Positions 26,878-45,800 of a stretch of 64,000 nt of DNA are shown here, one piece after another. The DNA lies in NCBI RefSeq assembly GCF_014349235.1, contig NZ_JACSOH010000005.1, positions 62,001 through 126,000 of the forward strand, written 5' to 3'. This DNA comes from Cytophaga sp. FL35 (GTDB lineage Bacteria > Bacteroidota > Bacteroidia > Flavobacteriales > Flavobacteriaceae). Under the pieces are notes generated by a model, which did no database searches, was not told the origin of the DNA, and saw only the letters and a list, made by a program, of their open reading frames with translations. How positions within the stretch are numbered: the stretch's first letter is position 1; each line of letters starts with the position of its first letter. The position numbers and the translations under genes were made by a program.

Positions 26878-26912
26878 TCGTGTGCTCTATTTCTCTAAAA
26901 TTAAATAAAAAA

Positions 26913-28625
26913 TTAATGTGATGCCGCCTCTCCAGCACCACTTGGTATTCTTATATCTTCAACTATTTCTTGTACATCTTCCGGTGGTGGGGGAGTAAAT
27001 TTCATGATGACGATGGAAACTATAAAATTCACCAGCATAGCAACGCTTCCAAAGCCCTCCGGAGAAATTCCGAACCACCAGTCTTTTTCAAGGTTTGCAA
27101 CGGCTTCTTTACCTCCGTCGAAAATTCCAAACTTGAATTTAAGCATGTAAAAAATCATCAGTGAGATACCGATGACCATTCCCGCAATAGCCCCTTCCTT
27201 GTTCATTCTTTTATAAAATATACCCAGAACAATGGCCGGAAAAAAAGAGGCTGCGGCCAGACCAAAAGCCAAGGCGACAACTGCGGCTACAAATCCGGGT
27301 GGATTGATGCCAAAATAACCGGCAATTACCACAGCTACCGTTGCGGCGCCTCTTGCGGCCCAAAGTTCTCCTTTTTCGGAAATAGTGGGGACAAATACTT
27401 TTTTTATCAAATCATGGGATACCGATGCGGAAATCACTAAAAGTAAGCCTGCAGCGGTAGATAGAGCAGCCGCCAATCCTCCAGCAGCCACCAAAGCTAT
27501 AACCCAAGGGGGCAGATCCGCTATCTCCGGATTGGCCAATACCATGATATCACGGTCTACGGTCAACTCATTTATGGTAGCATCTGCCACATATTGGATT
27601 TTACCATCCCCATTTTTGTCATCAAACGCTAGCAAACCTGTTGTTTCCCAATTTTTAAACCATTGGGGCATGGAGGCATACTCCTTATTGCTCACCGTAT
27701 TGATCATATTGGTTCTGGCAAAAACAGAGACCGCAGGCGCGGTGGTATATAAAATGGCAATTAGTAAAAGAGCCAAACCGGCCGATTTTCGGGCATCTTT
27801 GACCTTCTTAACGGTAAAAAACCGAACAATCACATGTGGTAAGCCTGCGGTACCAACCATTAAAGCCAACGTAATCATAAAAACATCGATGGTAGATTTT
27901 TTGCCATCGGTATATTCGGCAAAACCTAGTTCGGTCGAGAGTCCGTTTAACTTGTCCAATAAATACATGCCCGAGCCATCATTTAATCGTGATCCCATAC
28001 CCAATTGGGGAATAGGATTTCCGGTCATTTGAATAGAGATAAAGATGGCAGGAACCATAAAGGCAAAAATCAATACACAATACTGCGCCACTTGGGTATA
28101 GGTGATGCCCTTCATTCCGCCTAAAACGGCATAAAAAAGTACGATGACCATACCTATGATCACTCCGGTATTGATATCCACTTCTAAAAATCGTGAAAAA
28201 ACGACGCCTACACCACGCATTTGTCCTGCAACATAGGTAAAGGACACTATAAGGGCACAGATAACCGCAACAATACGTGCAGTTTTGGAGTAATACCGGT
28301 CCCCAATAAAATCAGGAACAGTGAACTTCCCAAACTTACGTAGGTAGGGGGCTAAAAGCAAAGCCAATAAAACATAACCACCTGTCCACCCCATAAGGTA
28401 TACAGAGCCGTCATAACCGGCAAAGGAGATGATTCCGGCCATGGAAATAAAAGATGCCGCGGACATCCAGTCAGCAGCGGTGGCCATCCCATTCGCAAGG
28501 GGAGAAACGCCTCCACCTGCCACATAAAAGTCATTTGTGGAACCGGCTCTTGACCAAATGGCAATGCCAATGTATAGTGTAAATGTAATACCTACGAGAA
28601 GGTACGTCCAGGTTTGAACATCCAT
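26913..28625 (-). CDS. Sodium:solute symporter (ActP/VC_2705-like), probable acetate uptake
   Basis: A 570-residue SSS-family transporter with about 13 membrane helices. Family landmarks include DFYVAGGGVSPLANGMATAADWMSAASF near residue 32 and the SAGLALLLIAILYTTAPAV helix. An extracytoplasmic loop near residue 330-345 carries FDDKNGDGKIQY, an EF-hand-like calcium loop. It lies between the DUF4212 small subunit and acs, which with family knowledge of ActP and the VC_2705 subfamily points to acetate or another short monocarboxylate as substrate. Substrate identity is inferred from context. Confidence 0.9.
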   Translation of the reverse strand: MDVQTWTYLLVGITFTLYIGIAIWSRAGSTNDFYVAGGGVSPLANGMATAADWMSAASFISMAGIISFAGYDGSVYLMGWTGGYVLLALLLAPYLRKFGKFTVPDFIGDRYYSKTARIVAVICALIVSFTYVAGQMRGVGVVFSRFLEVDINTGVIIGMVIVLFYAVLGGMKGITYTQVAQYCVLIFAFMVPAIFISIQMTGNPIPQLGMGSRLNDGSGMYLLDKLNGLSTELGFAEYTDGKKSTIDVFMITLALMVGTAGLPHVIVRFFTVKKVKDARKSAGLALLLIAILYTTAPAVSVFARTNMINTVSNKEYASMPQWFKNWETTGLLAFDDKNGDGKIQYVADATINELTVDRDIMVLANPEIADLPPWVIALVAAGGLAAALSTAAGLLLVISASVSHDLIKKVFVPTISEKGELWAARGAATVAVVIAGYFGINPPGFVAAVVALAFGLAAASFFPAIVLGIFYKRMNKEGAIAGMVIGISLMIFYMLKFKFGIFDGGKEAVANLEKDWWFGISPEGFGSVAMLVNFIVSIVIMKFTPPPPEDVQEIVEDIRIPSGAGEAASH

Positions 28626-28985: not shown

Positions 28986-30077
28986 TTAATTTGGTGAAAA
29001 CACCACTCCGCTCGAAGAATCTCTTTTTGCCCCGGTGACGGAACTAAGAACGTTTATCTTATTTTCTAATCGTAGAGCGCCCATCAATGCAAAAACAAGG
29101 GCTTCTTTAAACTCGATGAGTTTTTTTTCCGGAACCACCGCCTTGGTCGTATTGCCCAATTTTTCTTGTAATACTTCCACCAAATAATCATTGAGCGCCC
29201 CACCGCCCGTAACAAATAGGGTTTGATTGGCGGACACTGAATTTTGTTTTATTTGAATGGCTACTTGCTCGCATACATGGTGGACACTGGTACAAAGCAA
29301 ATTGGCCATGCTATCATTGGTCTGGTCTACAATTGGAACCACTTTGTCAACAAACCATTCAAAACCGATGGATTTAGGATAGGGTAGGCCGTAAAATTCT
29401 AAAGCGTTCAATTGCTGTAACATACGAGGATTGACCACTCCGCTACGAGCGAGCATACCGCCTTTATCATACTCCAAATCTTCCTTGTGGGTGATGTGGT
29501 TGAGAATCATGTTGGCTAAGCCAATATCGTAGGCAATTCTTTTTCCATTTTTTTCAAAGGACACATTGCTGATGCCTCCCAAATTGAGGCAGAAATCATA
29601 ATCGCCAAAAAACAATTGGTCCCCAATAGGTACGAGCGGAGCTCCTTGGCCATTAAGCGCGACATCATTGGTACGAAAGTCACAGACCGTTTTCACCCCT
29701 GCGGCATTGGCCAAATGTTGCCCCGAACCAATTTGAAAAGTCAGTCCGTTTTCAGGTTGATGATGGGTGGTATGCCCATGACTGGCAATGGCATCAACTA
29801 CTAGTTGCTTATCCTGAATAAATTGCAAGGTTTGTTCGCCCAGCCAAGTACCATATTCATTATGGAAAATTAGAAGTTCATCGGCCTTCAGATAAATGGA
29901 ATTTTTTAGTTTTTCCTTCATTTCCTTGGAGTAGGATATGCTTCTGGTTTCCGCTATTTCAAAATTATAGGCGTCTTCTTTTTCTTGAATGATGCAATAC
30001 GCTAAATCGAGACCATCTAAAGAGGTACCGGACATTAAACCGATTATCTTGTGAGTTTTCATCATTTTATTTTTCAA
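28986..30077 (-). CDS. anmK: Anhydro-N-acetylmuramic acid kinase
   Basis: Cleaves the 1,6-anhydro ring and phosphorylates anhydroMurNAc to MurNAc-6-P in peptidoglycan recycling. It is 363 residues. The ATP-binding GLMSGTSLDGLD is at residues about 14-25, followed by HGHTTHHQP, VCDFRTNDVALNGQGAPLVP with the catalytic Asp, LNLGGISN and the VTGGGALN motif. The longest frame overlaps nagZ by 11 bases; the ATG at 30062 would leave a 4-base gap and a more typical N-terminus, so the start is uncertain by five codons. Last gene of the nagB-digH-ampG-nagZ-anmK series. Confidence 0.95.
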   Translation of the reverse strand: MKNKMMKTHKIIGLMSGTSLDGLDLAYCIIQEKEDAYNFEIAETRSISYSKEMKEKLKNSIYLKADELLIFHNEYGTWLGEQTLQFIQDKQLVVDAIASHGHTTHHQPENGLTFQIGSGQHLANAAGVKTVCDFRTNDVALNGQGAPLVPIGDQLFFGDYDFCLNLGGISNVSFEKNGKRIAYDIGLANMILNHITHKEDLEYDKGGMLARSGVVNPRMLQQLNALEFYGLPYPKSIGFEWFVDKVVPIVDQTNDSMANLLCTSVHHVCEQVAIQIKQNSVSANQTLFVTGGGALNDYLVEVLQEKLGNTTKAVVPEKKLIEFKEALVFALMGALRLENKINVLSSVTGAKRDSSSGVVFSPN

Positions 30078-31623
30078 TAGTTACCGGAAGTTTCCCAATC
30101 GCTTGGAGATTTCCTAAAAAATGTTGTTGTGCTACCTCTTGAAACTCCTTAAAATCTTGGTAGGCTATTACCACTGCTTTTGCCTTGTCCACTTGCAGAT
30201 GGTTCAGGACATAGGGGTTGCCAAAAAGATATAAAACGGTATTTTCTGAAGCTAAAAGGACATTGATTTTCTCTAATTCCTCCAACGTAAAACCAAAATT
30301 GTTACTGGGTTTTATTTGTGGCGGAAATAGTGCCAGCAAATGGTTTGTACCCTTGGAGGCTTTAAATTCAATTACGTTACTACAATTATTAAAAGACAAT
30401 CCGTTTAAAAAAGAGGCTGCCTTTTCAGGGCTGTTGCAAACTATCTGAAAGCCTTCTTTTCTAAATTGCTCGATATCAGAAGCGTTTCCCTGATAAAGAG
30501 TGATACTTTTTTTGGCAATAGCGGTGTTGAGGGGAGAGGCATCAGTTAAGAAAGCTTTGTTATCAGCATGGTTAATAAACTTTTCCTTCAATTTATAAAC
30601 CCTTTGAAAACTCTCTTCAATTTGTTCCTCGGAAGCATTTTTTACGATTTTTTCAATGCCTTCCATGGTGTTTTCGGCAAAACAGAGAATATCGTTTCCG
30701 GCGTCGAAAGCCAGCCATTCCAATTCTCCTTTTTCAGGAAAGTTTTTAGAAACGGCATGCATGTTCAAGGCATCTGAAATAACCACGCCCTCAAAGCCCA
30801 TTTCGTTTCTAAGCACACCTTTAATAATTTCCTTTGAAATGCTACTAGGTACGTTTTTATTCCCTGCCAAAGCAGGAACGGAAAGATGTCCTACCATAAC
30901 CGCTTCAGCACCTTCATCAATTAATTTTTGAAAGGGATAAAGTTCATTTTGAATCAACTCAGCCTTGCTTTTATCAATTTGTGGTAGCCCTAAATGGGAA
31001 TCCGTGGCCGTATCCCCATGCCCCGGGAAGTGTTTAATACTTACGGGAACACCTTCACTTTGGGCTCCCTTTACATAAGCCAAAGCTTTTTGGGCAACCA
31101 AATTTCTGTCCTCCCCAAAGGAACGATAGCCAATGACAGGATTGTTGGGATTATTGTTAATGTCCGCAACAGGGGAGAGGTTCCAATGGATACCGGCCGC
31201 TTTGCAGTCTTTTGCAATGTTTTTACCTACTTGAAATATAAGTTCATCATCTTGAATGGCGCCCAAAGTAATAGCATAAGGGTATTGTGGCGTATTTTCT
31301 ATTCGCATGGCCAGGCCCCATTCGGCGTCAATGGCAATCAGTAAGGGTGTTTTTGCAACTTTTTGATACCGTTGGATGAGATTTTTCAGGGTATTGAAAC
31401 TCTGCTCGTTTTTAACTATTTTTTTCTTTCCTTCAAAATTGGTAGCGGCACTGGCCCTGCTGTGAAAAAAACAGATACCTCCAACATTACCTTCGGTAAT
31501 CAATTTTTCCAAAGCTTGAATTTCTTCTTCGGAATCGTTGATAAAGGCAGCGGGCATAAAAAGCTGGCCTACTTTTTCTCTTAGCGTCAAATTTTTGAAA
31601 TTTATGATAGCTACATCAGTCAT
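30067..31623 (-). CDS. nagZ: Beta-N-acetylglucosaminidase NagZ-like (GH3) with C-terminal extension
   Basis: Glycoside hydrolase family 3 enzyme, expected to split GlcNAc-1,6-anhydroMurNAc (with or without peptide) in the cytoplasm. The NagZ-type signature KHFPGHGDTATDSHLGLPQ with the His/Asp acid-base dyad is near residue 200, and the nucleophile Asp lies in VVISDALNMHA near 290. There is no signal peptide, as for a cytoplasmic recycling enzyme. At 518 residues it carries about 170 residues beyond E. coli NagZ (341), probably a GH3 C-terminal alpha/beta domain. It overlaps ampG by 8 bases and anmK by 11. Confidence 0.92.
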   Translation of the reverse strand: MTDVAIINFKNLTLREKVGQLFMPAAFINDSEEEIQALEKLITEGNVGGICFFHSRASAATNFEGKKKIVKNEQSFNTLKNLIQRYQKVAKTPLLIAIDAEWGLAMRIENTPQYPYAITLGAIQDDELIFQVGKNIAKDCKAAGIHWNLSPVADINNNPNNPVIGYRSFGEDRNLVAQKALAYVKGAQSEGVPVSIKHFPGHGDTATDSHLGLPQIDKSKAELIQNELYPFQKLIDEGAEAVMVGHLSVPALAGNKNVPSSISKEIIKGVLRNEMGFEGVVISDALNMHAVSKNFPEKGELEWLAFDAGNDILCFAENTMEGIEKIVKNASEEQIEESFQRVYKLKEKFINHADNKAFLTDASPLNTAIAKKSITLYQGNASDIEQFRKEGFQIVCNSPEKAASFLNGLSFNNCSNVIEFKASKGTNHLLALFPPQIKPSNNFGFTLEELEKINVLLASENTVLYLFGNPYVLNHLQVDKAKAVVIAYQDFKEFQEVAQQHFLGNLQAIGKLPVTIEK

Positions 31624-32890
31624 TGGAAGTAGATGATTTTTTCCCGAAATCTGGGGGATATTGTAAATATTTTAATAGTAAAAAGGCGGGTAGGGCAGAA
31701 ATGACCACCCAAATGAAAAAACCGTCATAACCCAACCAGTTTTGAACGGCGCCACTGATCATGCCTGGTAGCATGGCACCCAGCGCCATAAATCCGGTAG
31801 CAATGGCATAATGAGATGTCTTTGAGGCTCCTTCGGCTATGTAGATGAGGTACATCAAAAATGCCGCAAATCCAAAACCGTAGCCAAATTGTTCAAAAGC
31901 CACGGTAGCAACTACAAAAGCAAGACTTTTTGTTTGGGTAATCGCCATGATGGCATAAAGAACATTGGGAACGTTTAAGGAGAGCATCATAGGGAGCATC
32001 CATTTTTTGAGACCATCCCTTGAAATGAGAATTCCACCTAAAATACCTCCTGCCGAAAGGGTAATCAGACCCACGACCCCATAAATAATACCTACGTTTT
32101 CTGTGGAAATGGCCAAACCACCTTCTGAAAGGTCGTCCAACATAAAAAGCTGTGCCACCTTTGCCAGTTGAGATTCGCCTAACCTATAAGTCAAAATGAA
32201 GGCTAAAGCCACGGCGATGTTCGGTTTTTTAAAAAAGGAGGTGAAAACTTCCAAAAAGGCTTTGGGTTTTTCTGTTTCTATTTCTAATGATGATTCGAAT
32301 TTTGGGGTGGTAAAAAAGTTGATGACCGTTAATAATAGCATCAACAGACCGGTGATGATCATGGTATAGCTCCATGCCTTGGTATTGTCCCCATACATTT
32401 CTTCCAAATAGCCGGCCAAAACAACGATGAGTCCGCTACCGGTAACCATGGCCAACCGATAGAAGGTACTTCTGATTCCCACGAAAAAGGACTGTTTTTT
32501 TTCGGAAAGCCCTATCATGTAATAGCCATCGGAGGCAATATCGTTCGTAGCGGAAGCAAAGGCCGCTACCCAAAAACAGGCCAGGGTGGTTACAAAAAAC
32601 ATTTGAGTAGGAACTGTGAACCCAACGGCCAAAAACATGACGGCAATAAGTAGTTGCATAACCAAAAACCAATTTCTCTTGGTACTTTTTAGGTCCACCA
32701 CAGGGCTCCAAATAGGTTTTAGCACCCAAGGCAGGTATAAAAGACCGGTGTAAAGGGTAATATCTGTATTGTTGATGCCCAACTGCTTGTACATGATTAC
32801 GGAAACCGATGCAATAATAACATTGGGAAGTCCTTCCGCGAAATATAACGGAGGAACCCAGCCCCAAGCCCATTTGTCTTTTTTGATCAT
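31616..32890 (-). CDS. ampG: AmpG-like muropeptide permease (MFS)
   Basis: A 424-residue MFS transporter with 12 predicted helices, resembling AmpG, which imports GlcNAc-anhydroMurNAc (peptides) into the cytoplasm. Characteristic segments include PLYFAEGLPNVIIASVSVIMYKQLG at the N-terminus, LPWVLKPIWSPVVDL, and DIASDGYYMIGLSEKKQSFFVGIRSTFYR. The position between a digH-like lipoprotein and nagZ-anmK makes the muropeptide assignment strong. It overlaps nagZ by 8 bases and starts 10 bases after the digH-like stop, so all four genes are one translational chain. Confidence 0.92.
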   Translation of the reverse strand: MIKKDKWAWGWVPPLYFAEGLPNVIIASVSVIMYKQLGINNTDITLYTGLLYLPWVLKPIWSPVVDLKSTKRNWFLVMQLLIAVMFLAVGFTVPTQMFFVTTLACFWVAAFASATNDIASDGYYMIGLSEKKQSFFVGIRSTFYRLAMVTGSGLIVVLAGYLEEMYGDNTKAWSYTMIITGLLMLLLTVINFFTTPKFESSLEIETEKPKAFLEVFTSFFKKPNIAVALAFILTYRLGESQLAKVAQLFMLDDLSEGGLAISTENVGIIYGVVGLITLSAGGILGGILISRDGLKKWMLPMMLSLNVPNVLYAIMAITQTKSLAFVVATVAFEQFGYGFGFAAFLMYLIYIAEGASKTSHYAIATGFMALGAMLPGMISGAVQNWLGYDGFFIWVVISALPAFLLLKYLQYPPDFGKKSSTSND

Positions 32891-32900
32891 GTAAAATGCT

Positions 32901-34406
32901 TTAGTTTAAAAGTAGGGTTTTAGGTTCACTTTCCTTTCCATACTTATCTAAAAAAGTATAGCTAATCTTCTTTCTACCCTTTAAATCAGCAATTGGAATC
33001 TCAATATATTCGGGATTGGTAATAAAGGGCTTCGTTATAATATTTTTAGGGAGGATGGTTTCCTCTTGGCTTTTTTCTGATTTGTAAACCACCCATTGCT
33101 TTGCAATGCTGAGGTCTTTAAAATAAAACCTGATTCTATCGCCCACCGTTGCTTTTGAAATATATTCCGGATAATCATTCGTGCTTGCACCCGTACTGGC
33201 GATTGGTATTAAGGCATCTTGAGCATAGAAGTTTCTCTTTAAGAAGCGTTGGTGCTTTTTCTTTTTTTCCTGAAGGCTTTTTGCGCTAAAAAAGACGTTA
33301 CCATCTACATTTTTGGTTTTACGGGCATACAGTATTTGATTTGGTAGTTCTTTTTTGCTGTTCCAAGCCTCATCACTGTTATTTTCAATTTTGTAAGGCC
33401 CGTTTCCAATATAAAGTTGGGTGTTCTTGCTATTTTCACTCCACCAATCCACTAACTTTTTATGAGAGGCAACATTGTGTTCCATACTCCAATATAGCTG
33501 CGGCACTACGTAATCTAACCAGCCTTTTTCCATCCACAACAGGGGATCGGCGTAAAGATTTTCATATGTGGTTTGTCCAGCTTGGGTATCGGAACCTTTG
33601 GGGTCCGTACTTTTGTTTTTCCATACCCCGAATGGACTCACGCCAAACTGTACCCAAGGCTTGTTCTTTTTAGTGGCTTGGAAGCTTTTTTTAATTAGCG
33701 AATCCATATTGCCTCGGCGCCAATCATCTAAATCCTGACCGGGGTGTTGGTATTGTTGATAGGCGAGGGAGTCATTGAAAATTTCGTCTTTAATAGTGTA
33801 GGGATAAAAATAATCATCGTAGTGAATGCCGTCAATATTGTAGTTGTTGACCAATTCGGTAATGATGGAGGCCATGTGTTCTTGAACTTCTGGCAGACCG
33901 GGGTTGTAATAATATTTTTTACCATATTTGATCATCCAGTCAGGATGTTGATAAAAATCATGGTCAGCAGCAAGGCTTACAGTATCTAGATTAAAGGTGG
34001 CCCTATACGGATTGAGCCATGCGTGAAACTCCATTCCACGTTTATGGGTTTCTTGAACCATCCAAGTTAGGATATCCTCGGAGCTATCTTTGGGAGCCTT
34101 TCCTTCCTCGCCTGTTAGGTAGCGCGACCACGGGGCAAAGTCCGATTTATAAAATGCGTCCCCGGCAGTTCTAACTTGAACAATGGCCGCATTAAATTTT
34201 AATTCTTCATAGTAATCCAAAAGGTCTAAATAATCACTCTTTTTTTTGGCGATTTCATCATTTGGATTTTTTGGCCAATCGATATTGACAACGGTAGCCA
34301 CCCAAAACCCTCTAAATTCTCGCTTGGGCTGGGGACCTTTTTTGTATACGGAGCAGGAGGTAATTAAGCCTGCTAGAAAAAAATATGTAAGTAGTCTTGA
34401 AATCAT
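32901..34406 (-). CDS. GHL10-family (DigH/YngK-like) glycosyl hydrolase lipoprotein
   Basis: A 501-residue lipoprotein from the ATG at 34406 (lipobox FLAGLITSC). The GHL10 (DUF187) domain covers about residues 25-330: EFRGFWVATVVNIDWP, FNAAIVQVRTAGDAFY, MEFHAWLNPYRATF, NYNIDGIHYDDYFYP with the likely catalytic acids, and VQFGVSPFGVWKN; a C-terminal beta-sandwich follows. E. coli DigH (YddW) of this family cleaves denuded peptidoglycan glycans, which fits the recycling genes downstream. An upstream ATG (34433) lies inside the nagB terminator hairpin and is rejected. CAZyme class is clear; the glycan target is inferred from context. Confidence 0.87.
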   Translation of the reverse strand: MISRLLTYFFLAGLITSCSVYKKGPQPKREFRGFWVATVVNIDWPKNPNDEIAKKKSDYLDLLDYYEELKFNAAIVQVRTAGDAFYKSDFAPWSRYLTGEEGKAPKDSSEDILTWMVQETHKRGMEFHAWLNPYRATFNLDTVSLAADHDFYQHPDWMIKYGKKYYYNPGLPEVQEHMASIITELVNNYNIDGIHYDDYFYPYTIKDEIFNDSLAYQQYQHPGQDLDDWRRGNMDSLIKKSFQATKKNKPWVQFGVSPFGVWKNKSTDPKGSDTQAGQTTYENLYADPLLWMEKGWLDYVVPQLYWSMEHNVASHKKLVDWWSENSKNTQLYIGNGPYKIENNSDEAWNSKKELPNQILYARKTKNVDGNVFFSAKSLQEKKKKHQRFLKRNFYAQDALIPIASTGASTNDYPEYISKATVGDRIRFYFKDLSIAKQWVVYKSEKSQEETILPKNIITKPFITNPEYIEIPIADLKGRKKISYTFLDKYGKESEPKTLLLN

Positions 34407-34412
34407 AAAAAT

Positions 34413-34444
34413 AAAGAGGCCTATTTTAAACAATAGGCCTCTTT
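34413..34444 (-). terminator. Intercistronic terminator-like hairpin between nagB and the digH-like gene
   Basis: A perfect 13-bp stem AAAGAGGCCTATT / AATAGGCCTCTTT (34413-34425 with 34432-34444) and a 6-base loop, followed on the minus strand by a T-rich tail. It begins 17 bases after the nagB stop and ends 7 bases before the next ATG. Confidence 0.85.
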
Positions 34445-34460
34445 TGATATAGGTGGTTGT

Positions 34461-36392
34461 TTAGTTTACTTCATAGCGAACAAAGGCTTCGATTGCAGCA
34501 TAATCAGAAAGCCCTAAAGCCCTATATTTTTGTGCAGTATACTTGTTTCTTTCTTCGGCTCTCATCCAAAACTCCCTAGCATCATCCCCTTGAAACATTA
34601 CCCCGTCCTTTTGGGATTGGTGGCAGAAAATGGCATAACGCTTTTTCAATACTTGGTCCGGACTCATAGGAACGGCCATTTCGATCTCATGAATATCCCA
34701 TTCGTGCCAAGCACCACGGTATAACCATAACCAACAATCTTTCATAAAAGGTTCCGGTTTTAATCTTCGCATGGCTTCAAATACCGCATCCAAACAAACC
34801 TTATGGGTTCCGTGAGGGTCAGCTAAGTCACCCGCGGCGTATATTTGATGTGGTTCTACCTCTTTGATGATATTCATCATTATTTCGATATCGGCATCAG
34901 AAAGATTATTCTTCTTAATAGTTCCCGTTTCATAAAAAGGAAGGTCCAAGAAATGTACGTTTTCATCTGGAAGACCCAAGTAACGGGTTGCCGCATAAGA
35001 CTCTCCTCTTCTAATATTACCTTTTAGTTTTCTTACTTCAAGGGTGTCAAAACTACTCTCTTTTTTAGCCTTAATATCGTCTATCAATTTTTGGGCTTCA
35101 TCAGAATAATTAATTCTTTTGGCTATACCGGCGTAACGTAGGGCATCGGCATCGGAAACGGCAATATTTCCAGAAGTCTGGTAGACCACATGAACCTCAT
35201 GACCTTGCTCTATTAACCTATCAAAGGTTCCTCCCATAGAAATGACATCATCATCTGGGTGTGGGCTAAATAGTATCACCCTTTTCTTTGCAGGTTCCGC
35301 TCTTTCCGGTCTGTTGGTATCATCTGCATTTGGCTTTCCACCAGGCCATCCCGTAATGGTGCGTTGTAACCTATTGAACATGTTTATATTCAAGTCGTAA
35401 GAATCTTGGGTTGCCAATAATCCGGACATACCGTTATCATTATAATCTTTGTCCGTTAGGCTAAGAATTGACTTATTGGTCTGTTCACATAGCCAAACAA
35501 TGGCCTTGGATGTAAGGCTTTCTGTCCAATCCAAGGACTCATCTACAAGCCAAGGAGTCTTGTTTCTGGTCAATTGGCTGCCGGCTCCCGTATCCAACAC
35601 AAACGTACAGTTTTTATGCTCCTGTAAATAGGTAGCGGGAACTTGAGAAGATATTTCGCCTTCTACCGTCTTCTTGATGATATCGGCCTTGTTTTCGCCC
35701 CATCCCAATAAAACGATTCTTTTGGCGCTACGTACGGTGGCTATACCCATTGTAATAGCTTTTCTAGGCACGTTGTCTATACCTAAAAAAGCAGGGGCGG
35801 CATCTACTCTGGTGATATGGTCAAGTGTAATCACCCTAGTCCCGGAATTATAGTGAGAACCAGGTTCGTTAAATCCAACGTGTCCGGTACGGCCAATTCC
35901 CAATAGTTGAAAATCAAGGCCACCGGCCTTCTTTATTGCTTTTTCGTATGCCAAACAATAGTCGATAACGTCATCACCTTGAATGGTACCCTCCGGAATG
36001 TGAATGTTTTCCTCTGGTATGTCTATATGATTGAATAGATGTTCGTGCATAAAGTACCAGTAGCTCTGGCGATTGTCTTTTTCCATGGGAAGGTACTCGT
36101 CCAAGTTAAAAGTGATAACATTGGAGAATGTCAACCCTTCTTCTTTGTGCATGCGAACCAACTCCTCATAAACTCTAATAGGAGAAGAACCTGTAGCAAG
36201 TCCTAAAACACAGTTTTTGTTTTCCTTTTGCTTTTTTCTGATGAGAGCAGCAATCTCCTCGGCAACCTTTATCGAAGCTCTGTTGGAGTCCGAAAAAATA
36301 ACATTGTGAATTTTTTCAAATCGAGTCTCTTCAAATTGACCTACAGGCCTGTATTCAATTGAAGATCCGTTTTTTTCGAGAATTGTTTTCAT
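34461..36392 (-). CDS. nagB: Glucosamine-6-phosphate deaminase fused to a PIG-L/LmbE deacetylase domain
   Basis: A 643-residue fusion. The N-terminal about 270 residues are NagB, converting GlcN-6-P to Fru-6-P plus ammonia: LGLATGSSPIRVYEEL, VITFNLDEYLPM (catalytic Asp) and LGIGRTGHVGFNEPGS with the catalytic His and Glu (E. coli has Asp where this reads Thr). After a linker, about residues 365-640 form a PIG-L/LmbE-like Zn deacetylase with FSPHPDDD and DPHGTH, so the metal ligands look intact. This architecture is recurrent in Bacteroidota. The ATG at 36428 is rejected because a TATATTTG promoter box ends one base before it. No separate nagA is in the window. Confidence 0.92.
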   Translation of the reverse strand: MKTILEKNGSSIEYRPVGQFEETRFEKIHNVIFSDSNRASIKVAEEIAALIRKKQKENKNCVLGLATGSSPIRVYEELVRMHKEEGLTFSNVITFNLDEYLPMEKDNRQSYWYFMHEHLFNHIDIPEENIHIPEGTIQGDDVIDYCLAYEKAIKKAGGLDFQLLGIGRTGHVGFNEPGSHYNSGTRVITLDHITRVDAAPAFLGIDNVPRKAITMGIATVRSAKRIVLLGWGENKADIIKKTVEGEISSQVPATYLQEHKNCTFVLDTGAGSQLTRNKTPWLVDESLDWTESLTSKAIVWLCEQTNKSILSLTDKDYNDNGMSGLLATQDSYDLNINMFNRLQRTITGWPGGKPNADDTNRPERAEPAKKRVILFSPHPDDDVISMGGTFDRLIEQGHEVHVVYQTSGNIAVSDADALRYAGIAKRINYSDEAQKLIDDIKAKKESSFDTLEVRKLKGNIRRGESYAATRYLGLPDENVHFLDLPFYETGTIKKNNLSDADIEIMMNIIKEVEPHQIYAAGDLADPHGTHKVCLDAVFEAMRRLKPEPFMKDCWLWLYRGAWHEWDIHEIEMAVPMSPDQVLKKRYAIFCHQSQKDGVMFQGDDAREFWMRAEERNKYTAQKYRALGLSDYAAIEAFVRYEVN

Positions 36393-36429
36393 TTTAAGAT
36401 AGTTCTTTTGGTAGAGGTTTAAATCCATG

Positions 36430-36437
36430 CAAATATA
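36430..36437 (-). promoter_or_regulatory. -7 promoter box TATATTTG for nagB
   Basis: Minus-strand TAnnTTTG match ending at 36430, 38 bases before the ATG at 36392; it rules out the ATG at 36428. The repeat at 36457-36469 covers the expected -33 region. Confidence 0.6.
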
Positions 36438-36548: not shown

Positions 36549-36556
36549 TATATTTG
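36549..36556 (+). promoter_or_regulatory. -7 promoter box TATATTTG for the DeoR-type regulator
   Basis: TAnnTTTG match 30 bases before the ATG at 36587; the inverse repeat copy at 36521-36534 lies in its -33 region. Confidence 0.6.
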
Positions 36557-36586: not shown

Positions 36587-37336
36587 ATGTTAAAGGAAGA
36601 GCGGCAACAGACCATACTCAACGAGGTTGAACTTCATAACCGGATCCTGCTTACGGATATTGCCGAAGCGCTTGACGTCTCAATTGACACCGTTAGAAGG
36701 GATGTAAAAGAGTTGGATTCTGAAAATAAACTGCGAAAAGTACATGGCGGTGCTATTTCCTTGGGATTTACGGTCAATAGTACACGGAACCAGAACGTCT
36801 ATAAGCTTGAGGAAAAAAATATTATTGCGCAAAAGGCTTTGAGTTTAATAAAACCGGGCTCGGTAATTTTTATTGATGGTGGTACCACCTGCTCCGAGCT
36901 CGCAAGGCTTATACCCCATAACCTCGAAATCACCTGTTTCACCCATAGCTTGCCGGTAGCATCGGAACTACTTAGCAAGCCCAATGTAAACGTCATCATT
37001 GTTGGGGGACAGGTATCCAGTGAATCACAGACCACCATTGGGGCCAACGCTATTCATAACCTGTCCGAAATCCGGGTTGATTTTAGTTTTATTGGCACAG
37101 GTTATGTAGATTCCTTTTACGGACTCACAGAATTTGATTGGGACATTGTACAGGTAAAAAAAGCAGTGATAAAAAGCTCTAAAAAAACGGTACTTTTATC
37201 CATTTCGGAAAAACTGAATTCGCAACACCGTTATAAAACTTGTGATATAAACGCCATCAATACGATGATTACCGAGTTGAATCCCACGGATGCGTTATTG
37301 AACTCATTTAGAAACCACGATATACATATTTTATAA
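36587..37336 (+). CDS. DeoR-family transcriptional regulator
   Basis: A 249-residue DeoR-type regulator. The N-terminal winged HTH reads KEERQQTILNEVELHNRI then LTDIAEALDVSIDTVRRDVKEL with the DeoR recognition-helix signature TVRRD. The DeoRC sugar-phosphate sensor domain follows, with FIDGGTTCSELARLIP (phosphosugar loop) and the later FIGTGYVDSFYGLTEFDWD. It is divergent from the nagB operon and 6 bases before murQ, so it most likely controls the recycling genes in response to an amino-sugar phosphate such as GlcNAc-6-P or GlcN-6-P. The ligand is inferred. Confidence 0.9.
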   Translation: MLKEERQQTILNEVELHNRILLTDIAEALDVSIDTVRRDVKELDSENKLRKVHGGAISLGFTVNSTRNQNVYKLEEKNIIAQKALSLIKPGSVIFIDGGTTCSELARLIPHNLEITCFTHSLPVASELLSKPNVNVIIVGGQVSSESQTTIGANAIHNLSEIRVDFSFIGTGYVDSFYGLTEFDWDIVQVKKAVIKSSKKTVLLSISEKLNSQHRYKTCDINAINTMITELNPTDALLNSFRNHDIHIL

Positions 37337-37342
37337 ATAGCC

Positions 37343-38152
37343 ATGACTTATACCAAAATTACCGAATCTCCTTCCAATCATGATCATTTGGAGCAATTGG
37401 ATACCTTGTCCATCCTTACCAAAATGAATGAGGAAGATCAAAAAGTGGCCACAGCTGTAGCAGAGGCAATTCCCCACATTACCCAATTAGTTGATGGCCT
37501 TGCCGAACGCTTTGAAAAAGGGGGTAGGTTGTTTTATATTGGTGCGGGAACCAGTGGCAGATTGGGTGTTTTGGATGCTTCTGAAATACCGCCAACCTAT
37601 GGTTTGCCGCATACTAGGGTCATTGGTATCATAGCTGGAGGTGATAAAGCCATTAGGAAATCTGTGGAAAACGCAGAGGACGATACGGACCAAGCTTGGA
37701 AAGACTTAATGGTGCATAATGTAAACGAGTTGGATGTGGTCGTGGGAATTGCGGCTTCCGGTACAACCCCTTATGTTCTTGGTGGAATAGCCGAAGCTAA
37801 AAAGAATGGTCTTTTGACCGCGGGAATCACCAATAACCCAGGTTCGCCATTGGCCACTTCTGCCGATATTCCTATTGAGATGAATGTTGGACCGGAGTTT
37901 GTAACTGGGAGTACGAGAATGAAAAGTGGCACTTCGCAAAAACTTGCCCTCAATATGATTTCAACTGCCTTGATGATCCGTATCGGTAGGGTAAAAGGCA
38001 ATAAAATGGTCAACATGCAATTAAGTAATAACAAACTTGTGGACAGAGGAGCAAGGTATGTGGCCGAAGGTCTTCAAATACCTTATGAACAAGCAGAAGT
38101 ATTACTTAAAAAGCACGGTTCTGTAAAAGCGGCTATTGACGCAGGAGCATAA
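37343..38152 (+). CDS. murQ: N-acetylmuramic acid 6-phosphate etherase
   Basis: Removes D-lactate from MurNAc-6-P, giving GlcNAc-6-P. It is 269 residues, shorter than E. coli MurQ (298) because the C-terminal helices are trimmed. The SIS domain shows the phosphosugar loop FYIGAGTSGRLGVLDASEIPPTYG with a catalytic Glu, the ENAEDDTDQAW segment with the second acid, GIAASGTTPYVLGGI and VGPEFVTGSTRMKSGTSQK. It is co-transcribed with the DeoR-type gene. It ends 3 bases from the convergent cytochrome gene, with no terminator between. Confidence 0.96.
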   Translation: MTYTKITESPSNHDHLEQLDTLSILTKMNEEDQKVATAVAEAIPHITQLVDGLAERFEKGGRLFYIGAGTSGRLGVLDASEIPPTYGLPHTRVIGIIAGGDKAIRKSVENAEDDTDQAWKDLMVHNVNELDVVVGIAASGTTPYVLGGIAEAKKNGLLTAGITNNPGSPLATSADIPIEMNVGPEFVTGSTRMKSGTSQKLALNMISTALMIRIGRVKGNKMVNMQLSNNKLVDRGARYVAEGLQIPYEQAEVLLKKHGSVKAAIDAGA

Positions 38153-39837: not shown

Positions 39838-42800
39838 ATGTTCCCAACAAAAAAGAGGCATATTCTTATTGCCCTAATATTACTGATATCCTCAGTAGTA
39901 GGCACTACGGCAATAGCCAATCCCAAAGTCTATACCCTAATTACCGAAGTTGCCGAGGTAGTCAAGGAAGTAGTTTCTACTGTTAAGAAAGAAAGCCACA
40001 AGAAGGATAATATGTTTTTGAGGAATACCCAAAAAAACAAAGCGGTAAAGAATTCTGTTGCGGCTCCCATGTTTATGACTATCATACAAGGGGCAGATGA
40101 AACCGTAAGTTGTGCCAATGATGGGGCAACCATAGCGCGTTTTATACTTTGTGGGGATTCTGATGACAGAAATATCACCTTATCCGGAGGGCCTTATTCA
40201 ACGGTTTCTTGGCAGCAACTGGCCGGTACCCCAAATACCAATGTAGAATGTCCTGACTATGCCGGAACCTACAATGAAGTACATAATGGGCCATCCTTTA
40301 ATTTGGATGCCAGTACCATTTCTGCGGCCAATGGTGCGGAATTTAGGGTTCAGGTAAATGGGGGGCAGTATTATTATATTGAAGTAGTTAAGAGTACCAT
40401 TACCCAGACCTATACCAAAAAAGATTATGTATGTAACAATCCAGGTCGGATTGAAATTACAGGACTACCTAACAGTTATCAATTTAGAATTAGGGAAGGG
40501 GCCAACCCTTTTGGTCCTTACCAATCTTCTTCCATTTTTGATAATTTGACTCCGGGCTCCTATCAGGTACAGGCCCGTTTGAACATTTCTGGTCAGGTAT
40601 GTGAGTACTTATATGAAGTAATCGAAATTGAAGAGGTTGATATTGAAATAGACGTTACGTTTACGAATCCGGTATGTAGTGGTGAAACAGGAAGTATTGA
40701 TGTTACCGTTAATCCAGAAGTACCTGGGCCGTACGTGTATACCTTATTGGATGAGAACGGCGCCGAAATTGAATTTACTTCTACCATTAGTAGTAACACC
40801 TATACTTTTGGGGCTGTGAGCGAAGGTACATATGCCGTAAAGGTTGAAACCAATGATTGTCGTGAGGACATTCCCAACGGAATTCCTGCACCGATCCAAT
40901 ATACGGATACCAGCGGAAATCCAATTACGGTTGGTGAGGGGTTAAGCCCCATTTCTGTGGTTACTGATACCAATGGTATGAGTTTTGGTTGTTCTACGAT
41001 ATCAAGTGTGGATATTGACGTAACCCCTTCTGGAGGCTCCGGCTCTTATAGTTATACCGTAAGTGATGGAGGTAATTCAGGCGGATTTTTCACAGGAACC
41101 AGTTCCTATACGGTAACTTCTCCTGGTACTTATACATTTTTTATTACGGATGATCAAGGTTGTACAGCTGAAAAGTCTGAATATGTTGCAGAACTAGATC
41201 CACCCGATGTAACAGCGTCCGATATTATCGGTACGTGTACCAATGGAGGAGGAAAGGTAGATTTCACAATTAACGATCCAAGAGGATTCAATCTGGAATT
41301 CAGGGCTACGAACAATGCAGGTGATCCATTTACAAGCTCATCAACCATTCCTGTTGCCGATGGTACTTATAATATAGTAGAAGTAAGATATTCTCAAGGA
41401 GCTTTTTCATGTGTTCTTTCACTTCCGGCGGTTACCGTGACCTCAGAAGGTGGTTTAAACGGTTCTGCCAACTTAACCCAAGATTATACCTGTAATAATA
41501 GCGGGGCTATTATCGATTTTGCTCCGGCGACGGGCGGTTCCGGTTCCGGTTATGAATATAGTATTGATAACACCAATTACCAGGCAGGTACCAGTTTTAC
41601 TGGGCTGGCACCCGGTACCTACATCCCTTATATTAGGGACGATGCTGGGTGTTATCAAGCATTGGCTCCAATTACGGTCTCAGAACCCGTTCCGCCAACG
41701 GCTATCAATTTTGTACAGGACAATTTAGATTGTGCTACCGGAACTAGCAGGGTTACCATAGATGTCCAACCTGCTACATTTACCGTAGCTCAGTATGAAA
41801 TCATTTCTTCCAATCCCGCAACAGCATTGCCACCAGCACAGGCAAGCAACGTTTTTAACGGATTGGATTTGGATACTTCCTATCAATTTGAAATAACCGA
41901 TACCGATGGTTGTACGTACAATGCCAGTTTTACAACGGGAGGAATCAGCACTATTCGAGCCAGAGTACAGTCAGGTGGTGATCGTAGGGTTTGTCCTGGG
42001 GCTACGGACGGTGACGGCGGTTTTTTGGTCGATGGCTTTGCAACGGATTATGATTATATAGTAAATAGAACTGCTCCTTCAGCTGCTGTTATTACAAGCG
42101 GTAGTAATAGTACGGCATTAAATATTCCTATTTCAGGTTTAGGTGCAGGAACGTATGAAATAACGGTGACCGATAACGATACGAATTGTGTTTCTACGGC
42201 CTCTTTTGATGTAGAAGAAGCAGCCACTCCTTTGGGTATAACAGCCGATGTAACCGATATGAGTTGTCAAAACAACAATATTGGTAGGGTAAGGGCGAAT
42301 GCTTCCGGAGGATTTGGAAGCTATAGATATGAACTGTTGTGGCCACCTACAGATGGAAGGACTCAAGGGCCAAGAACGGGAAGAAATTTTGGAAATTTAA
42401 CCGAGGAAGGTACCTATACCTTAACTGTCATTGATTCCGAAGGATGTAGGGAGTCCACAACCTTTACACTTACCAGTGTAACGGCGCCAACGATTGCTTT
42501 GGATAGTGGGGACTTTTGTTATTCGCCAACCAATAACGGTCAACTTACGGTTACTTCAACCGCAGGCTCAGCACCTCTGGCATCCCATAGATATCGTATA
42601 AACGGAGGTTCCTTGCAAACGCCTGGAACAGCCGGAACCTATACTTTTACGGGATTGGTGCCAGGTAATTATACTATTGAGGTTGTTGATGGGAACGATT
42701 GTATCGCTTCCACCTCAAGTATTAGAATACCTCCCCAAGTTCAGGTGAATTTAGATGTAGTTTCTGAAATACCTTGTGGTGGTGACGGGGAAATGGAAAT

Positions 42801-45800
42801 CACGGTTTCCGGAGGCGATGTGAGCAATTTGGCTTCCACGTCTTATACCATTTATTTAGACGGAACTCCTGTAGCAGGTCATACGGGTAATCCTTTACCT
42901 TCTAACCCATTTAACTATACAGTTCCTTTCGGTTCTCATGGAGATTATACCGTAGAAGTTACGGATAACAACAGTTGTAACAATACTTCTGAAATATTGA
43001 CTTTTGCCGAGCCTACCAATATAGCGGCAACCCATAGAATTGTAGGCCCAAGTTGCGGTGATCCAAACAGTGGTTTTGTGGAGGTAATACCAACGGTATC
43101 TTCGGGTGTTCCACCTTTTGAGGTAATTTTTGCCCCTGTAGGCACTTTGGTTCCAGATCCAAATAACCCGGATCCAACGAGCACGTACTCTTTCTCCGAT
43201 CAAACCATTTACTCTGGATTGGCAGCTGGAGATTATGAGTATATGGTAAAAGATGCCAGAAACTGTATTACGGGTATAGTGGCTATTACGGTTGCCCCGG
43301 ATCCCAACCCTGCACCAGATGCTACGGTAACGCCCATTGACGCTAGCTGTAATGCTGGGGACTTGTCCGGTGGGGTAACGGTAAATTTACCAACGGCCGG
43401 GGTGGAAACCTATACCATCATTATTGAGGATAATTTTGGAAATGAGTTTGTATCGCAAAATAACGTGGCGGATGCAGATTTTCCAGTGAATATTTCTGAT
43501 CCAAGTCTGGTTCCTGGAAATTATCAGATGATAATAATCGATTCTAGAGGATGTAACGATATTGAACCTTTTACAATTAACACTGCAGCCTTGGATATAA
43601 TCCCCACTTATCCACCACCACCAGCTATCTGTAGTCCTGGAGGAACAACAGTTTGTGTGGAAATCGTGAATGGAACAGGTCCGTATGAAATTCGATTGGC
43701 GGACCCGGATCCATTAGTAGGTTGGACGGCTCCTAATAATACAGCTACCAATCACTGTTTTGCCGGTCTTCTTTGGGGCGTTTCTTATACCGTTGAGGTT
43801 CGTGATACGGCTACAGGTTGTACTTATCAAGAAGTGATTACATTGCCCGATGGACCGGGTCCTACGGTTACAATAACTGTTGACGGTGCAACTTGTAGAA
43901 ATGGTGATGTGGGTGTAAATTATACTATCATAGGTGGTACGGCTCCTTTCGATGTAATCATAACAAATTTAGATACAGGCGCTGAAGTTTATAATGTAAC
44001 CAATTCTTCTTTGACCACTCTCGGTACCGATTTGACCGTTCCACAGGGAAGATATGGTATTTCTGTACTGGATGCAGGTGATTGTTCTGGCGGTGATGAA
44101 GATGAAGCAACCGTAAATATGCCCCGTGTAGATATTATTGACAACCAAAACGCTAACTGTAACGCCTTAGGGCAATTGACCGTACGTGGAAGTGGTGGTA
44201 CACCGTTTGGCACGGGTAGCCCATATCTATATGCCTATATGCCGGCAGGTACTCCTCCCGCTATAGGTGATTTTACCGATGCTTCCACCGTGGCACTTCC
44301 AGGGTCATTGGCGCCTGGTACCGATTATGATATTTGGGTAAGGGATGCCAATAATTGTTCCTTTATGGTTACGGCTGCTGTGATTCAGTTAAATCCTGAT
44401 TTACCAGCTCCATCTATTGATGTGAATAATCAATGTAGTCCGACTCCCCCAGTTGGTGGTTTTACGGTTAATTTGACAATGCCAGGCGATATTGATACAC
44501 CTACATTCACCTTTAATGGGGTGAGTCAAACTCCGGCTTATACTCCTGGAACTCCTACTGTTGCAACATTTAACGTAGGAAGCGCTGGTTCTTATCCTGT
44601 ATATATTATTGATGCCAATGGCTGTGAGGTCAATGATTCTGTGGAAGTTTTTCAAGTGCTTACAGCATCAGGCGATTTTACATTTGAACCAACTTGTGAA
44701 GACTCTGATGGCACGGTAACAATAACATCAAATGGCGGTAGTGGGGATTTTTCTTATGTTCTTAGTGGTACCGATTTCGATGGTAATCCAATAACTGTGA
44801 ATTTGCCAAATCAGGGTAGTGTTGTCAATTTTACGAACATCCCTTCTGGAAATTATCAGGTAGATGTGACCGATAATGTTGCAAGGGCTGGAGGTGTATT
44901 TTGTACTTACACCATCAACAATATAAGTAGATCTAATCCTACCCAACCAAATATTGATGATACCGGTGCCTCAGATATAAGCTGTAATGGTGCGAATGAT
45001 GGTAGTATTTCTGCTTCTATACAATCAGGAACTGATATAGACGGTATTCAAGAATACAACCTCTACAATTCTACATTGGCCAGTATGCCTGCCAATCTAG
45101 ATACTTCAGGTAGAGCAGGAACAAATGCCTCAGGAACATTCTTGAATTTAACGCCGGGTACCTATGTGATTGAGGTGGTGACCGATAGAAATTGTTTTGA
45201 TAGGGAAGAAGTGGTTATTAATGAACCACCTCCATTTGAAATTGATGTGACTGCGGGAACTTTAGTTTGTAACCCTGCGGCGAATCAATATAGCACGACT
45301 AATGTAACAGCAAGTATCGTTGGTACGAACGTTGGTAATGGCGGTCCATATGGTTATAAATTAGACCCGGCGGATAGTTACCAAACGAGTCCAACTTTTG
45401 AAATAGTTGATACGGGTGTGGATCAAACGATTACCATTTACGCGATTGATTCCAATGGCTGCGAGTTTTTTGATTCCGTGACTGTATTGGCACCCAATAA
45501 TGTGTCGGCCATAATTACCCAAATTCGACCAATGGATTGTGAAAATCCGGAAAGGATACGGGTTGAGGTTACTGGTTCTACCAATTTTATCATTGAAGAC
45601 CAGGGCTTTAGTGTAGCTAATGTAAGCAGTGTTTCGCAACCTAGTGGTACGTTCGTAGAATTTGACCTGCCCATGGTTTCTGGAGAGTATAATTTACAGG
45701 TAAACGATGTGGGTGGTTGTACTTACCCGATAGCCGCTTACACAGTTTTAGAACCTGTTTTACCTACGGTAACCATATCACAAAATGACCCAGTAGGATG

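What the first reader, a model, noticed from the sequence alone, without database searches (positions are those of the whole stretch)
34461..36392. NagB fused to a PIG-L deacetylase: a candidate in-built replacement for NagA
The sequence shows a full NagB domain followed by a PIG-L/LmbE domain with both metal motifs (HPDDD and DPHGTH). The surrounding locus makes GlcNAc-6-P (MurQ) and would use GlcN-6-P (NagB), but no nagA-type deacetylase is present in the window. PIG-L enzymes (MshB, BshB, PIG-L) deacetylate GlcNAc-containing compounds. The inference is that the fused domain performs or channels the GlcNAc-6-P to GlcN-6-P step. The architecture is known in Bacteroidota; its function as a two-step enzyme is, as far as I know, not established.
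Basis: partly seen in the sequence, partly recalled or inferred. Interest (0 to 1): 0.72.

Follow-up and report, generated by a model that had tools for sequence, protein, structure and literature searches.

The report
Deaminase-deacetylase fusion, likely NagA substitute
This gene joins the enzyme that deaminates glucosamine-6-phosphate to a second, intact enzyme domain that probably removes the acetyl group just before it, so that bacteria could recycle cell-wall sugar without the classical deacetylase NagA; the fusion is a known but, as far as found here, untested protein family.

Summary
It is a full NagB domain plus a PIG-L domain with the recalled catalytic residues present, and belongs to NCBIfam NF002557 ("glucosamine-6-phosphate deaminase-like", 1052 bits). 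It heads fusion–GHL10–ampG–nagZ–anmK, divergent from deoR–murQ.

"No nagA" holds only for the window: the genome carries a NagA-like gene with its own NagB in another locus. Comparative data nevertheless favour the idea. Of 296 genomes of the phylum, 160 have NagB. Of the 110 without NagA, 109 carry a NagB-linked PIG-L; of the 50 with NagA, 40 do. In 8 of 86 fusions (two lineages) the NagB half lost its catalytic aspartate while the PIG-L half stayed intact; all eight genomes have a separate NagB and no NagA. The window's operon recurs in three genomes without NagA. A split NagB/PIG-L pair and a second fusion family without Pfam match, never found with the first in one genome, also turned up.

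Best reading: the PIG-L half is a GlcNAc-6-phosphate deacetylase (about 0.72). I found no biochemistry. Against it: one genome has nagA beside the fusion, and three genomes have NagB without either deacetylase.

The parts
34461..36392 (-). NagB–PIG-L fusion (643 aa; 655 aa if the ATG at 36428 is used)
35607..36287 (-). NagB (Glucosamine_iso) domain; E. coli D72, H143, E148, R172, K208 equivalents present, D141 equivalent is Thr (E. coli numbering recalled)
34773..35273 (-). PIG-L domain, HPDDD and DPHGTH motifs
32901..34433 (-). GHL10 glycosyl hydrolase-like protein
   Evidence: Pfam PF02638 235 bits; no NCBIfam match
31616..32890 (-). AmpG-type muropeptide transporter
   Evidence: TIGR00901 183 bits, under its cut-off of 350
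30067..31623 (-). NagZ-like GH3 beta-N-acetylhexosaminidase
   Evidence: NF003740 155 bits, under its cut-off of 207; Pfam GH3 269 bits
28986..30077 (-). AnmK, anhydro-N-acetylmuramic acid kinase
   Evidence: NF007144 518 bits over cut-off
36587..37336 (+). DeoR-family regulator
37343..38152 (+). MurQ, MurNAc-6-phosphate etherase (makes GlcNAc-6-P)
   Evidence: TIGR00274 308 bits over cut-off 302
36430..36437 (-). TATATTTG box in front of the fusion (possible Bacteroidota -7 box, consensus recalled; TANNTTTG is not enriched in the window, 82 found against 77 expected)
36549..36556 (+). TATATTTG box in front of deoR–murQ (same caveat)

Best explanation
The protein is a two-domain enzyme of peptidoglycan-sugar recycling. 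AmpG imports muropeptides, NagZ and AnmK yield MurNAc-6-P, and MurQ turns that into GlcNAc-6-P (roles from established knowledge of these families). The C-terminal PIG-L domain, a metal-dependent hydrolase unrelated to NagA, then removes the acetyl group from GlcNAc-6-P, and the N-terminal NagB domain converts the GlcN-6-P to fructose-6-P and ammonia. It is a non-orthologous replacement of NagA, fused to its successor enzyme. Shown: domain content, intact active-site residues, operon, co-occurrence. Inferred: the substrate, the direction of flux, and any channelling. In this genome a NagA-like gene in another locus probably serves imported amino sugars together with its own NagB (inference).
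For: 1. PIG-L metal/catalytic residues (MshB H13, D15, D16, H147 equivalents, recalled) intact in 86 of 86 distinct fusions. 2. 296 genomes: NagB in 160; without NagA 110, of which 109 have a NagB-linked PIG-L (91 type I, 17 type II, 1 split pair); with NagA 50, of which 40 do (Fisher p 3.8e-5, no phylogenetic correction). New genomes from one class: 6 of 8 without NagA, 3 of 14 with NagA (p 0.026). 3. In 8 of 86 fusions the NagB half lost D72 (two lineages; two of the eight also lost H143) but kept the PIG-L residues; all 8 genomes lack NagA and have a separate NagB. 4. In 60 of 80 NagA-less type I genomes tested (of 91) the fusions are the only NagB hits at E up to 1e-20. 5. anmK–nagZ–ampG–(GHL10)–fusion / deoR–murQ recurs in 4 of 20 further loci (L251, L253, L254, L263); three of these genomes lack NagA, and in two of those the fusion is the only NagB. 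6. Adjacent separate NagB and PIG-L genes in G219. 7. Closest solved PIG-L relatives are diacetylchitobiose deacetylases.
Against: No activity data. This genome has a NagA-like gene. In G068 a good NagA (288 bits) lies directly beside a fusion in a sialic-acid-type locus. 30 of 121 type I genomes also have NagA. Within MurQ-positive genomes NagA and the type I fusion are not anti-correlated (odds ratio 1.1, p 0.87). G148, G298 and G307 have NagB but neither NagA nor a linked PIG-L. The D141 equivalent of the NagB half is Thr or Ser in 78 of 86. In Flavobacterium johnsoniae deletion of a NagB in a chitin locus had no effect, which the authors explain by three further nagB-like genes, and they predict a separate NagA for this step (PMC5127042, passages).
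Confidence: 0.72

Rival explanations
1. The PIG-L half deacetylates free GlcNAc (or a small chito-oligosaccharide), as archaeal Dac does; a sugar kinase then makes GlcN-6-P for the NagB half.
For: Nearest solved relatives are Dac enzymes. Some fusions sit in SusCD/GH18/GH20 loci that should yield free GlcNAc (L065).
Against: The window operon makes GlcNAc-6-P through AnmK and MurQ, which this route would not use without a phosphatase.
Confidence: 0.13
2. Only the NagB half works on this pathway; the PIG-L half deacetylates something unrelated or is a regulatory sensor.
For: PIG-L proteins have varied substrates; E. coli NagB is activated by GlcNAc-6-P (both recalled; no call), so a sensor is conceivable.
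Against: Catalytic residues intact in 86 of 86, kept even where the NagB half lost D72; association with absence of NagA.
Confidence: 0.08
3. In this genome the NagA-like enzyme of contig C40 supplies GlcN-6-P for all pathways and the PIG-L half is redundant or vestigial.
For: NagA-like gene with its own NagB in the same genome; its sequence keeps the E, H, H and D positions of NagA as I read it by eye against the NagA of L035.
Against: It is a divergent NagA (216 bits, under the cut-off) in a separate SusCD/GH20 locus; the same recycling operon occurs in G130 and G234, in which no NagA and no other NagB was found.
Confidence: 0.07

Closest known systems
PRK02122 / NCBIfam NF002557, glucosamine-6-phosphate deaminase-like protein
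   Same: Same full-length architecture, 1052 bits
   Different: Nothing; it is a member. The family name ignores the PIG-L half, and I found no tested function in print (searches named in Tried and rejected).
NagA, GlcNAc-6-phosphate deacetylase (TIGR00221)
   Same: Proposed reaction
   Different: Unrelated amidohydrolase family; the fusion gives no TIGR00221 match
Diacetylchitobiose deacetylase Dac (Pyrococcus, 3we7, 8bgo)
   Same: PIG-L fold and HPDD block
   Different: Stand-alone; acts on the GlcNAc disaccharide (names of the PDB entries); identity in the structural match about 20%
MshB / BshB (mycothiol, bacillithiol deacetylases)
   Same: PIG-L superfamily
   Different: BshB1 model only 28.5 bits against a cut-off of 182.5; MshB chains only at E about 0.4 with the PIG-L profile
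NagB of the F. johnsoniae chitin utilisation locus (Fjoh_4557, PMC5127042, passages)
   Same: Locus type (SusCD, GH18, GH20 and a NagB) like L065 here
   Different: Described there as NagB only, could not be expressed; whether it carries a PIG-L half I did not check

Membership tests
NF002557 (PRK02122) NagB–PIG-L fusion | score over curated cut-off over the whole length | tested here: met
   1052 bits, residues 23-653 on model 12-651 of 653
NagB (TIGR00502) | score over cut-off and NagB fold | tested here: met
   252 bits, cut-off 236.9; 2bkv, TM to target 0.96
NagB (TIGR00502) | E. coli D72, H143, E148 and phosphate ligands R172, K208 (roles recalled) | tested here: met
   present in the window protein
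NagB (TIGR00502) | D141 of the ring-opening triad (recalled) | tested here: not met
   Thr169 in the window protein; T 57, S 21, N 6, V 2 of 86; whether D is required was not tested
NagB (TIGR00502) | GlcN-6-P deaminase activity | not testable with these tools
   needs assay
PIG-L / LmbE deacetylases | HPDD and second-His motif, PIG-L fold | tested here: met
PIG-L / LmbE deacetylases | deacetylase activity on an N-acetylglucosamine compound | not testable with these tools
   needs assay
NagA (TIGR00221) | amidohydrolase-type NagA sequence | tested here: not met
   no match for the fusion
BshB1 (TIGR04001) | score over cut-off | tested here: not met
   28.5 bits, cut-off 182.5

The most novel reading that the evidence does not exclude
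A NagA-independent amino-sugar route based on NagB-linked PIG-L deacetylases is the commoner arrangement among NagB-bearing Bacteroidota and reaches other phyla. It exists in three forms: the type I fusion (this gene), an adjacent gene pair, and a type II fusion of about 760-790 aa without Pfam match that did not occur with type I in any genome sampled. The deacetylase half is the part under steadiest selection, since the NagB half can decay once a separate NagB takes over.
Probability: 0.6. Interest if true: 0.72.

Novelty: new variant of a known kind. Interest (0 to 1): 0.62.

Why it matters
NagA is the textbook deacetylation step of GlcNAc use and cell-wall recycling. If PIG-L domains do this step in the 109 of 160 NagB-bearing genomes that have no NagA (and perhaps beside NagA in 40 more), pathway reconstructions that call GlcNAc use incomplete for lack of NagA are wrong for much of a large phylum. 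The two halves can be tested separately, and the natural fusions with a decayed NagB half are ready-made controls.

Tried and rejected
Simple anti-correlation of NagA with the type I fusion among MurQ-positive genomes: not found (odds ratio 1.1). It became interpretable only after counting NagB itself, because 55 MurQ-positive genomes have no NagB hit. "Fusion clusters with recycling genes everywhere": rejected; of 20 loci from 20 genomes of different families, MurQ was near in one, AmpG in one, GHL10 in two (one of them weak). acs next to the operon as an acetate sink: beside the operon in one of the four other genomes that have it (G182), so not pursued. Literature: no paper holds both "glucosamine-6-phosphate deaminase" and "PIG-L"; none holds "N-acetylglucosamine-6-phosphate deacetylase", "PIG-L" and "Bacteroidetes". 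Of the papers listed (25 of 73) none holds PIG-L; of those listed (20 of 208; 15 of 47) none holds LmbE; the unlisted ones I did not see. Only open-licence PMC papers were searched. Searches were seen as listings; passages were read in PMC8369159 (nothing on residue roles, so E. coli and MshB residue roles are recalled), PMC5790795 (names neither NagA nor NagB), PMC9007349 (NagA and NagX in glucosamine use, nothing on this fusion in the passages), PMC5583593 (lists non-orthologous pairs for the deaminase and the kinase, none for NagA in the passages) and PMC5127042. The type II model is of low confidence (pLDDT 72); its matches to large-toxin structures at E 6e-3 and above are chance and were ignored.

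Full report
What is there. The gene is an ORF on the minus strand, 34461..36428 (655 aa) or from the ATG at 36392 (643 aa). Pfam gives a NagB domain followed by a PIG-L domain, and NCBIfam places the whole protein in NF002557/PRK02122, "glucosamine-6-phosphate deaminase-like protein", with 1052 bits. The model (pLDDT 85) matches B. subtilis NagB and archaeal diacetylchitobiose deacetylase; by sequence profile the PIG-L half's best solved relatives are again the latter (E 2e-9). So the architecture is an annotated family, not a discovery; its function is the question.

Surroundings. On the minus strand follow GHL10, AmpG, NagZ and AnmK, with gaps of 27 and 10 bases and then two overlaps. On the plus strand DeoR starts 194 bases from the ATG at 36392, and MurQ follows DeoR after 6 bases. 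Two TATATTTG boxes point outward from the shared intergenic stretch, but TANNTTTG as such is not enriched in the window (82 found, 77 expected). If the minus-strand box is the promoter, the ATG at 36392 is the likelier start (inference).

NagA in this genome. TIGR00221 finds a 380-aa NagA-like protein on contig C40 (216 bits, cut-off 225.65). It lies among two GH20-type genes, an SSS symporter, SusCD-like genes and a 262-aa stand-alone NagB (Pfam confirms the NagB and the amidohydrolase; the other names are mine from the sequences). A similar locus occurs in G182 and G107. The substrate of this NagA-like protein is untested.

Phylum survey. The same 296 genomes were searched for the fusion (type I, over cut-off in 121), NagA (42 over cut-off plus 9 between 168 and 224 bits, 51 in all), MurQ (211, taking E below 1e-45) and NagB (160 at E up to 1e-15).

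Resolving the 'neither' genomes. Searching the 70 (with 5 further genomes) with a profile of the PIG-L half found a split pair in G219: a 263-aa NagB gene directly upstream of a 286-aa PIG-L gene. It also found a second kind of protein of about 760-790 aa, here called type II: a NagB-like half followed by a half with PHHDD and GPDTH motifs, present in 12 of 12 aligned members. The two type II members scanned have no Pfam match and reach 227 and 205 bits on NF002557, under its cut-off of 384. The C half aligns with the PIG-L profile over the region of the second motif (hhalign 99.1%, E 5e-19; the stretch does not include HPDD), and the model matches PIG-L enzymes weakly (E 9e-4 and above). Type II is in 27 of the 296 genomes, none of which has type I. 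The 70 thus divide into 54 without NagB, 14 with type II, the split pair of G219, and G148, which has NagB and nothing else.

The informative table. Of 160 NagB genomes, 110 lack NagA; 109 of these have type I (91), type II (17) or the split pair (1), and one (G148) has nothing. Of 50 with NagA, 40 also have type I (30) or II (10) and ten do not; those ten have only stand-alone NagB (Fisher p 3.8e-5). The ten, and G240 and G148, show no PIG-L of this family at E up to 1e-6. A later sample, 99 genomes of the class of G236 (52 of them new), gave 23 new genomes with a NagB hit. I dropped G319 (60 bits, 240 aa, more like a phosphogluconolactonase). Of the 22 left, 8 lack NagA and 6 of these carry a linked PIG-L: G313, G332 and G339 type I (G339 cut by the contig end), G306 and G338 type II, and G297 as a type II fragment cut by the contig start. 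G306 has a weak 142-bit NagA-like match and was counted as lacking NagA. G298 and G307 have neither. Of 14 with NagA, 3 have type II (p 0.026). Pooled: 115 of 118 without NagA against 43 of 64 with it (p 2e-8). Genomes are treated as independent, which overstates the p-values, and the class was my choice; the type II profile itself was not run on the new genomes.

Which NagB goes with NagA. Among type I genomes a separate stand-alone NagB was found in 20 of 30 with NagA and in 20 of 80 (of 91) without (p 1e-4). It lies beside NagA in, for example, G171, G203, G190, G158 and G162. In 60 of the 80 the fusions are the only NagB hits at E up to 1e-20.

Natural mutants. I aligned 86 distinct type I fusions from 83 genomes; one truncated locus (G246) was dropped and identical copies were collapsed. 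The four PIG-L residues equivalent to MshB H13, D15, D16 and H147 are intact in 86 of 86; one sequence (G146) changes the other motif histidine. The NagB base equivalent to E. coli D72 is lost in 8, in families f11 (G230, G238, which also change H143 to Asn) and f37 (G215, G207, G167, G270, G258, G278). All eight genomes lack NagA and have a separate NagB. Among 66 examined NagA-less genomes with D72 intact, 14 do. These are two lineages, so about two events. The simplest reading is that the PIG-L half has a task of its own, needed next to NagB and in the absence of NagA. Residue numbering and roles are recalled.

Operon and locus context. AnmK–NagZ–AmpG–(GHL10)–fusion with divergent DeoR–MurQ recurs in 4 of 20 further loci, most of them from the window's own family: G182 (without GHL10), G130, G134 and G234. 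Flanking genes are partly conserved too, so this is shared ancestry. G130, G134 and G234 lack NagA; G130 and G234 have no other NagB. There the pathway up to GlcNAc-6-P is encoded and the fusion is the only exit I found. In G206, without NagA and with NagB only in fusions, one fusion sits between SusCD and GH20 near a GH18 gene. That locus type is described in F. johnsoniae, with its NagB named as deaminase only (PMC5127042, passages). Type II lies next to a stand-alone NagB in NagA-less G120 and G338, and about 2.5 kb from one in NagA-less G078. In 80 named type II loci, many with short flanks, a stand-alone NagB is within the fetched stretch in 9, MurQ in 6 and an MR_MLE-family epimerase-like gene in 7.

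Counter-evidence. In G068 a 288-bit NagA abuts a fusion in a locus with a GlcNAc 2-epimerase, a sialic-acid-type esterase, a mutarotase and a lyase (read as 227 aa). Redundancy, or a fusion used there only for its NagB half, would explain it, but it is not what strict replacement predicts. The F. johnsoniae paper predicts NagA for this step and saw no effect on deleting one of several nagB-like genes.

Verdict. The PIG-L half most likely deacetylates GlcNAc-6-P (0.72). Free GlcNAc as substrate (0.13) is the main rival. Channelling is untested. I found no statement of this function in print in the searches named under Tried and rejected.

Noticed in passing
   Followed up: partly
L004:8120-19889 (contig C40 of the same genome): Second amino-sugar locus with divergent NagA-like protein, stand-alone NagB, two GH20-type genes, SSS symporter and SusCD; the NagA-like protein lacks the REPG motif seen in the NagAs of L035 and L106 (read by eye), so its substrate may differ.
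   Followed up: partly
L106:6641-18889 (G068): Sialic-acid-type locus in which NagA and a NagB–PIG-L fusion are neighbours.
   Followed up: partly
window 24970-28625 (-): Acetyl-CoA synthetase and SSS symporter downstream of anmK; would suit reuse of released acetate, but of the four other genomes with the operon only G182 has them beside it.
   Followed up: partly
window 39838-48588 (+): 2916-aa repetitive protein with a C-terminal stretch like a gliding/T9SS adhesin (recalled resemblance); relatives of its first 600 residues stand at the same place in four other genomes.
   Followed up: no
G148, G298, G307: NagB without NagA or a linked PIG-L found: either another deacetylase, use of GlcN only, or assembly gaps.
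   Followed up: no
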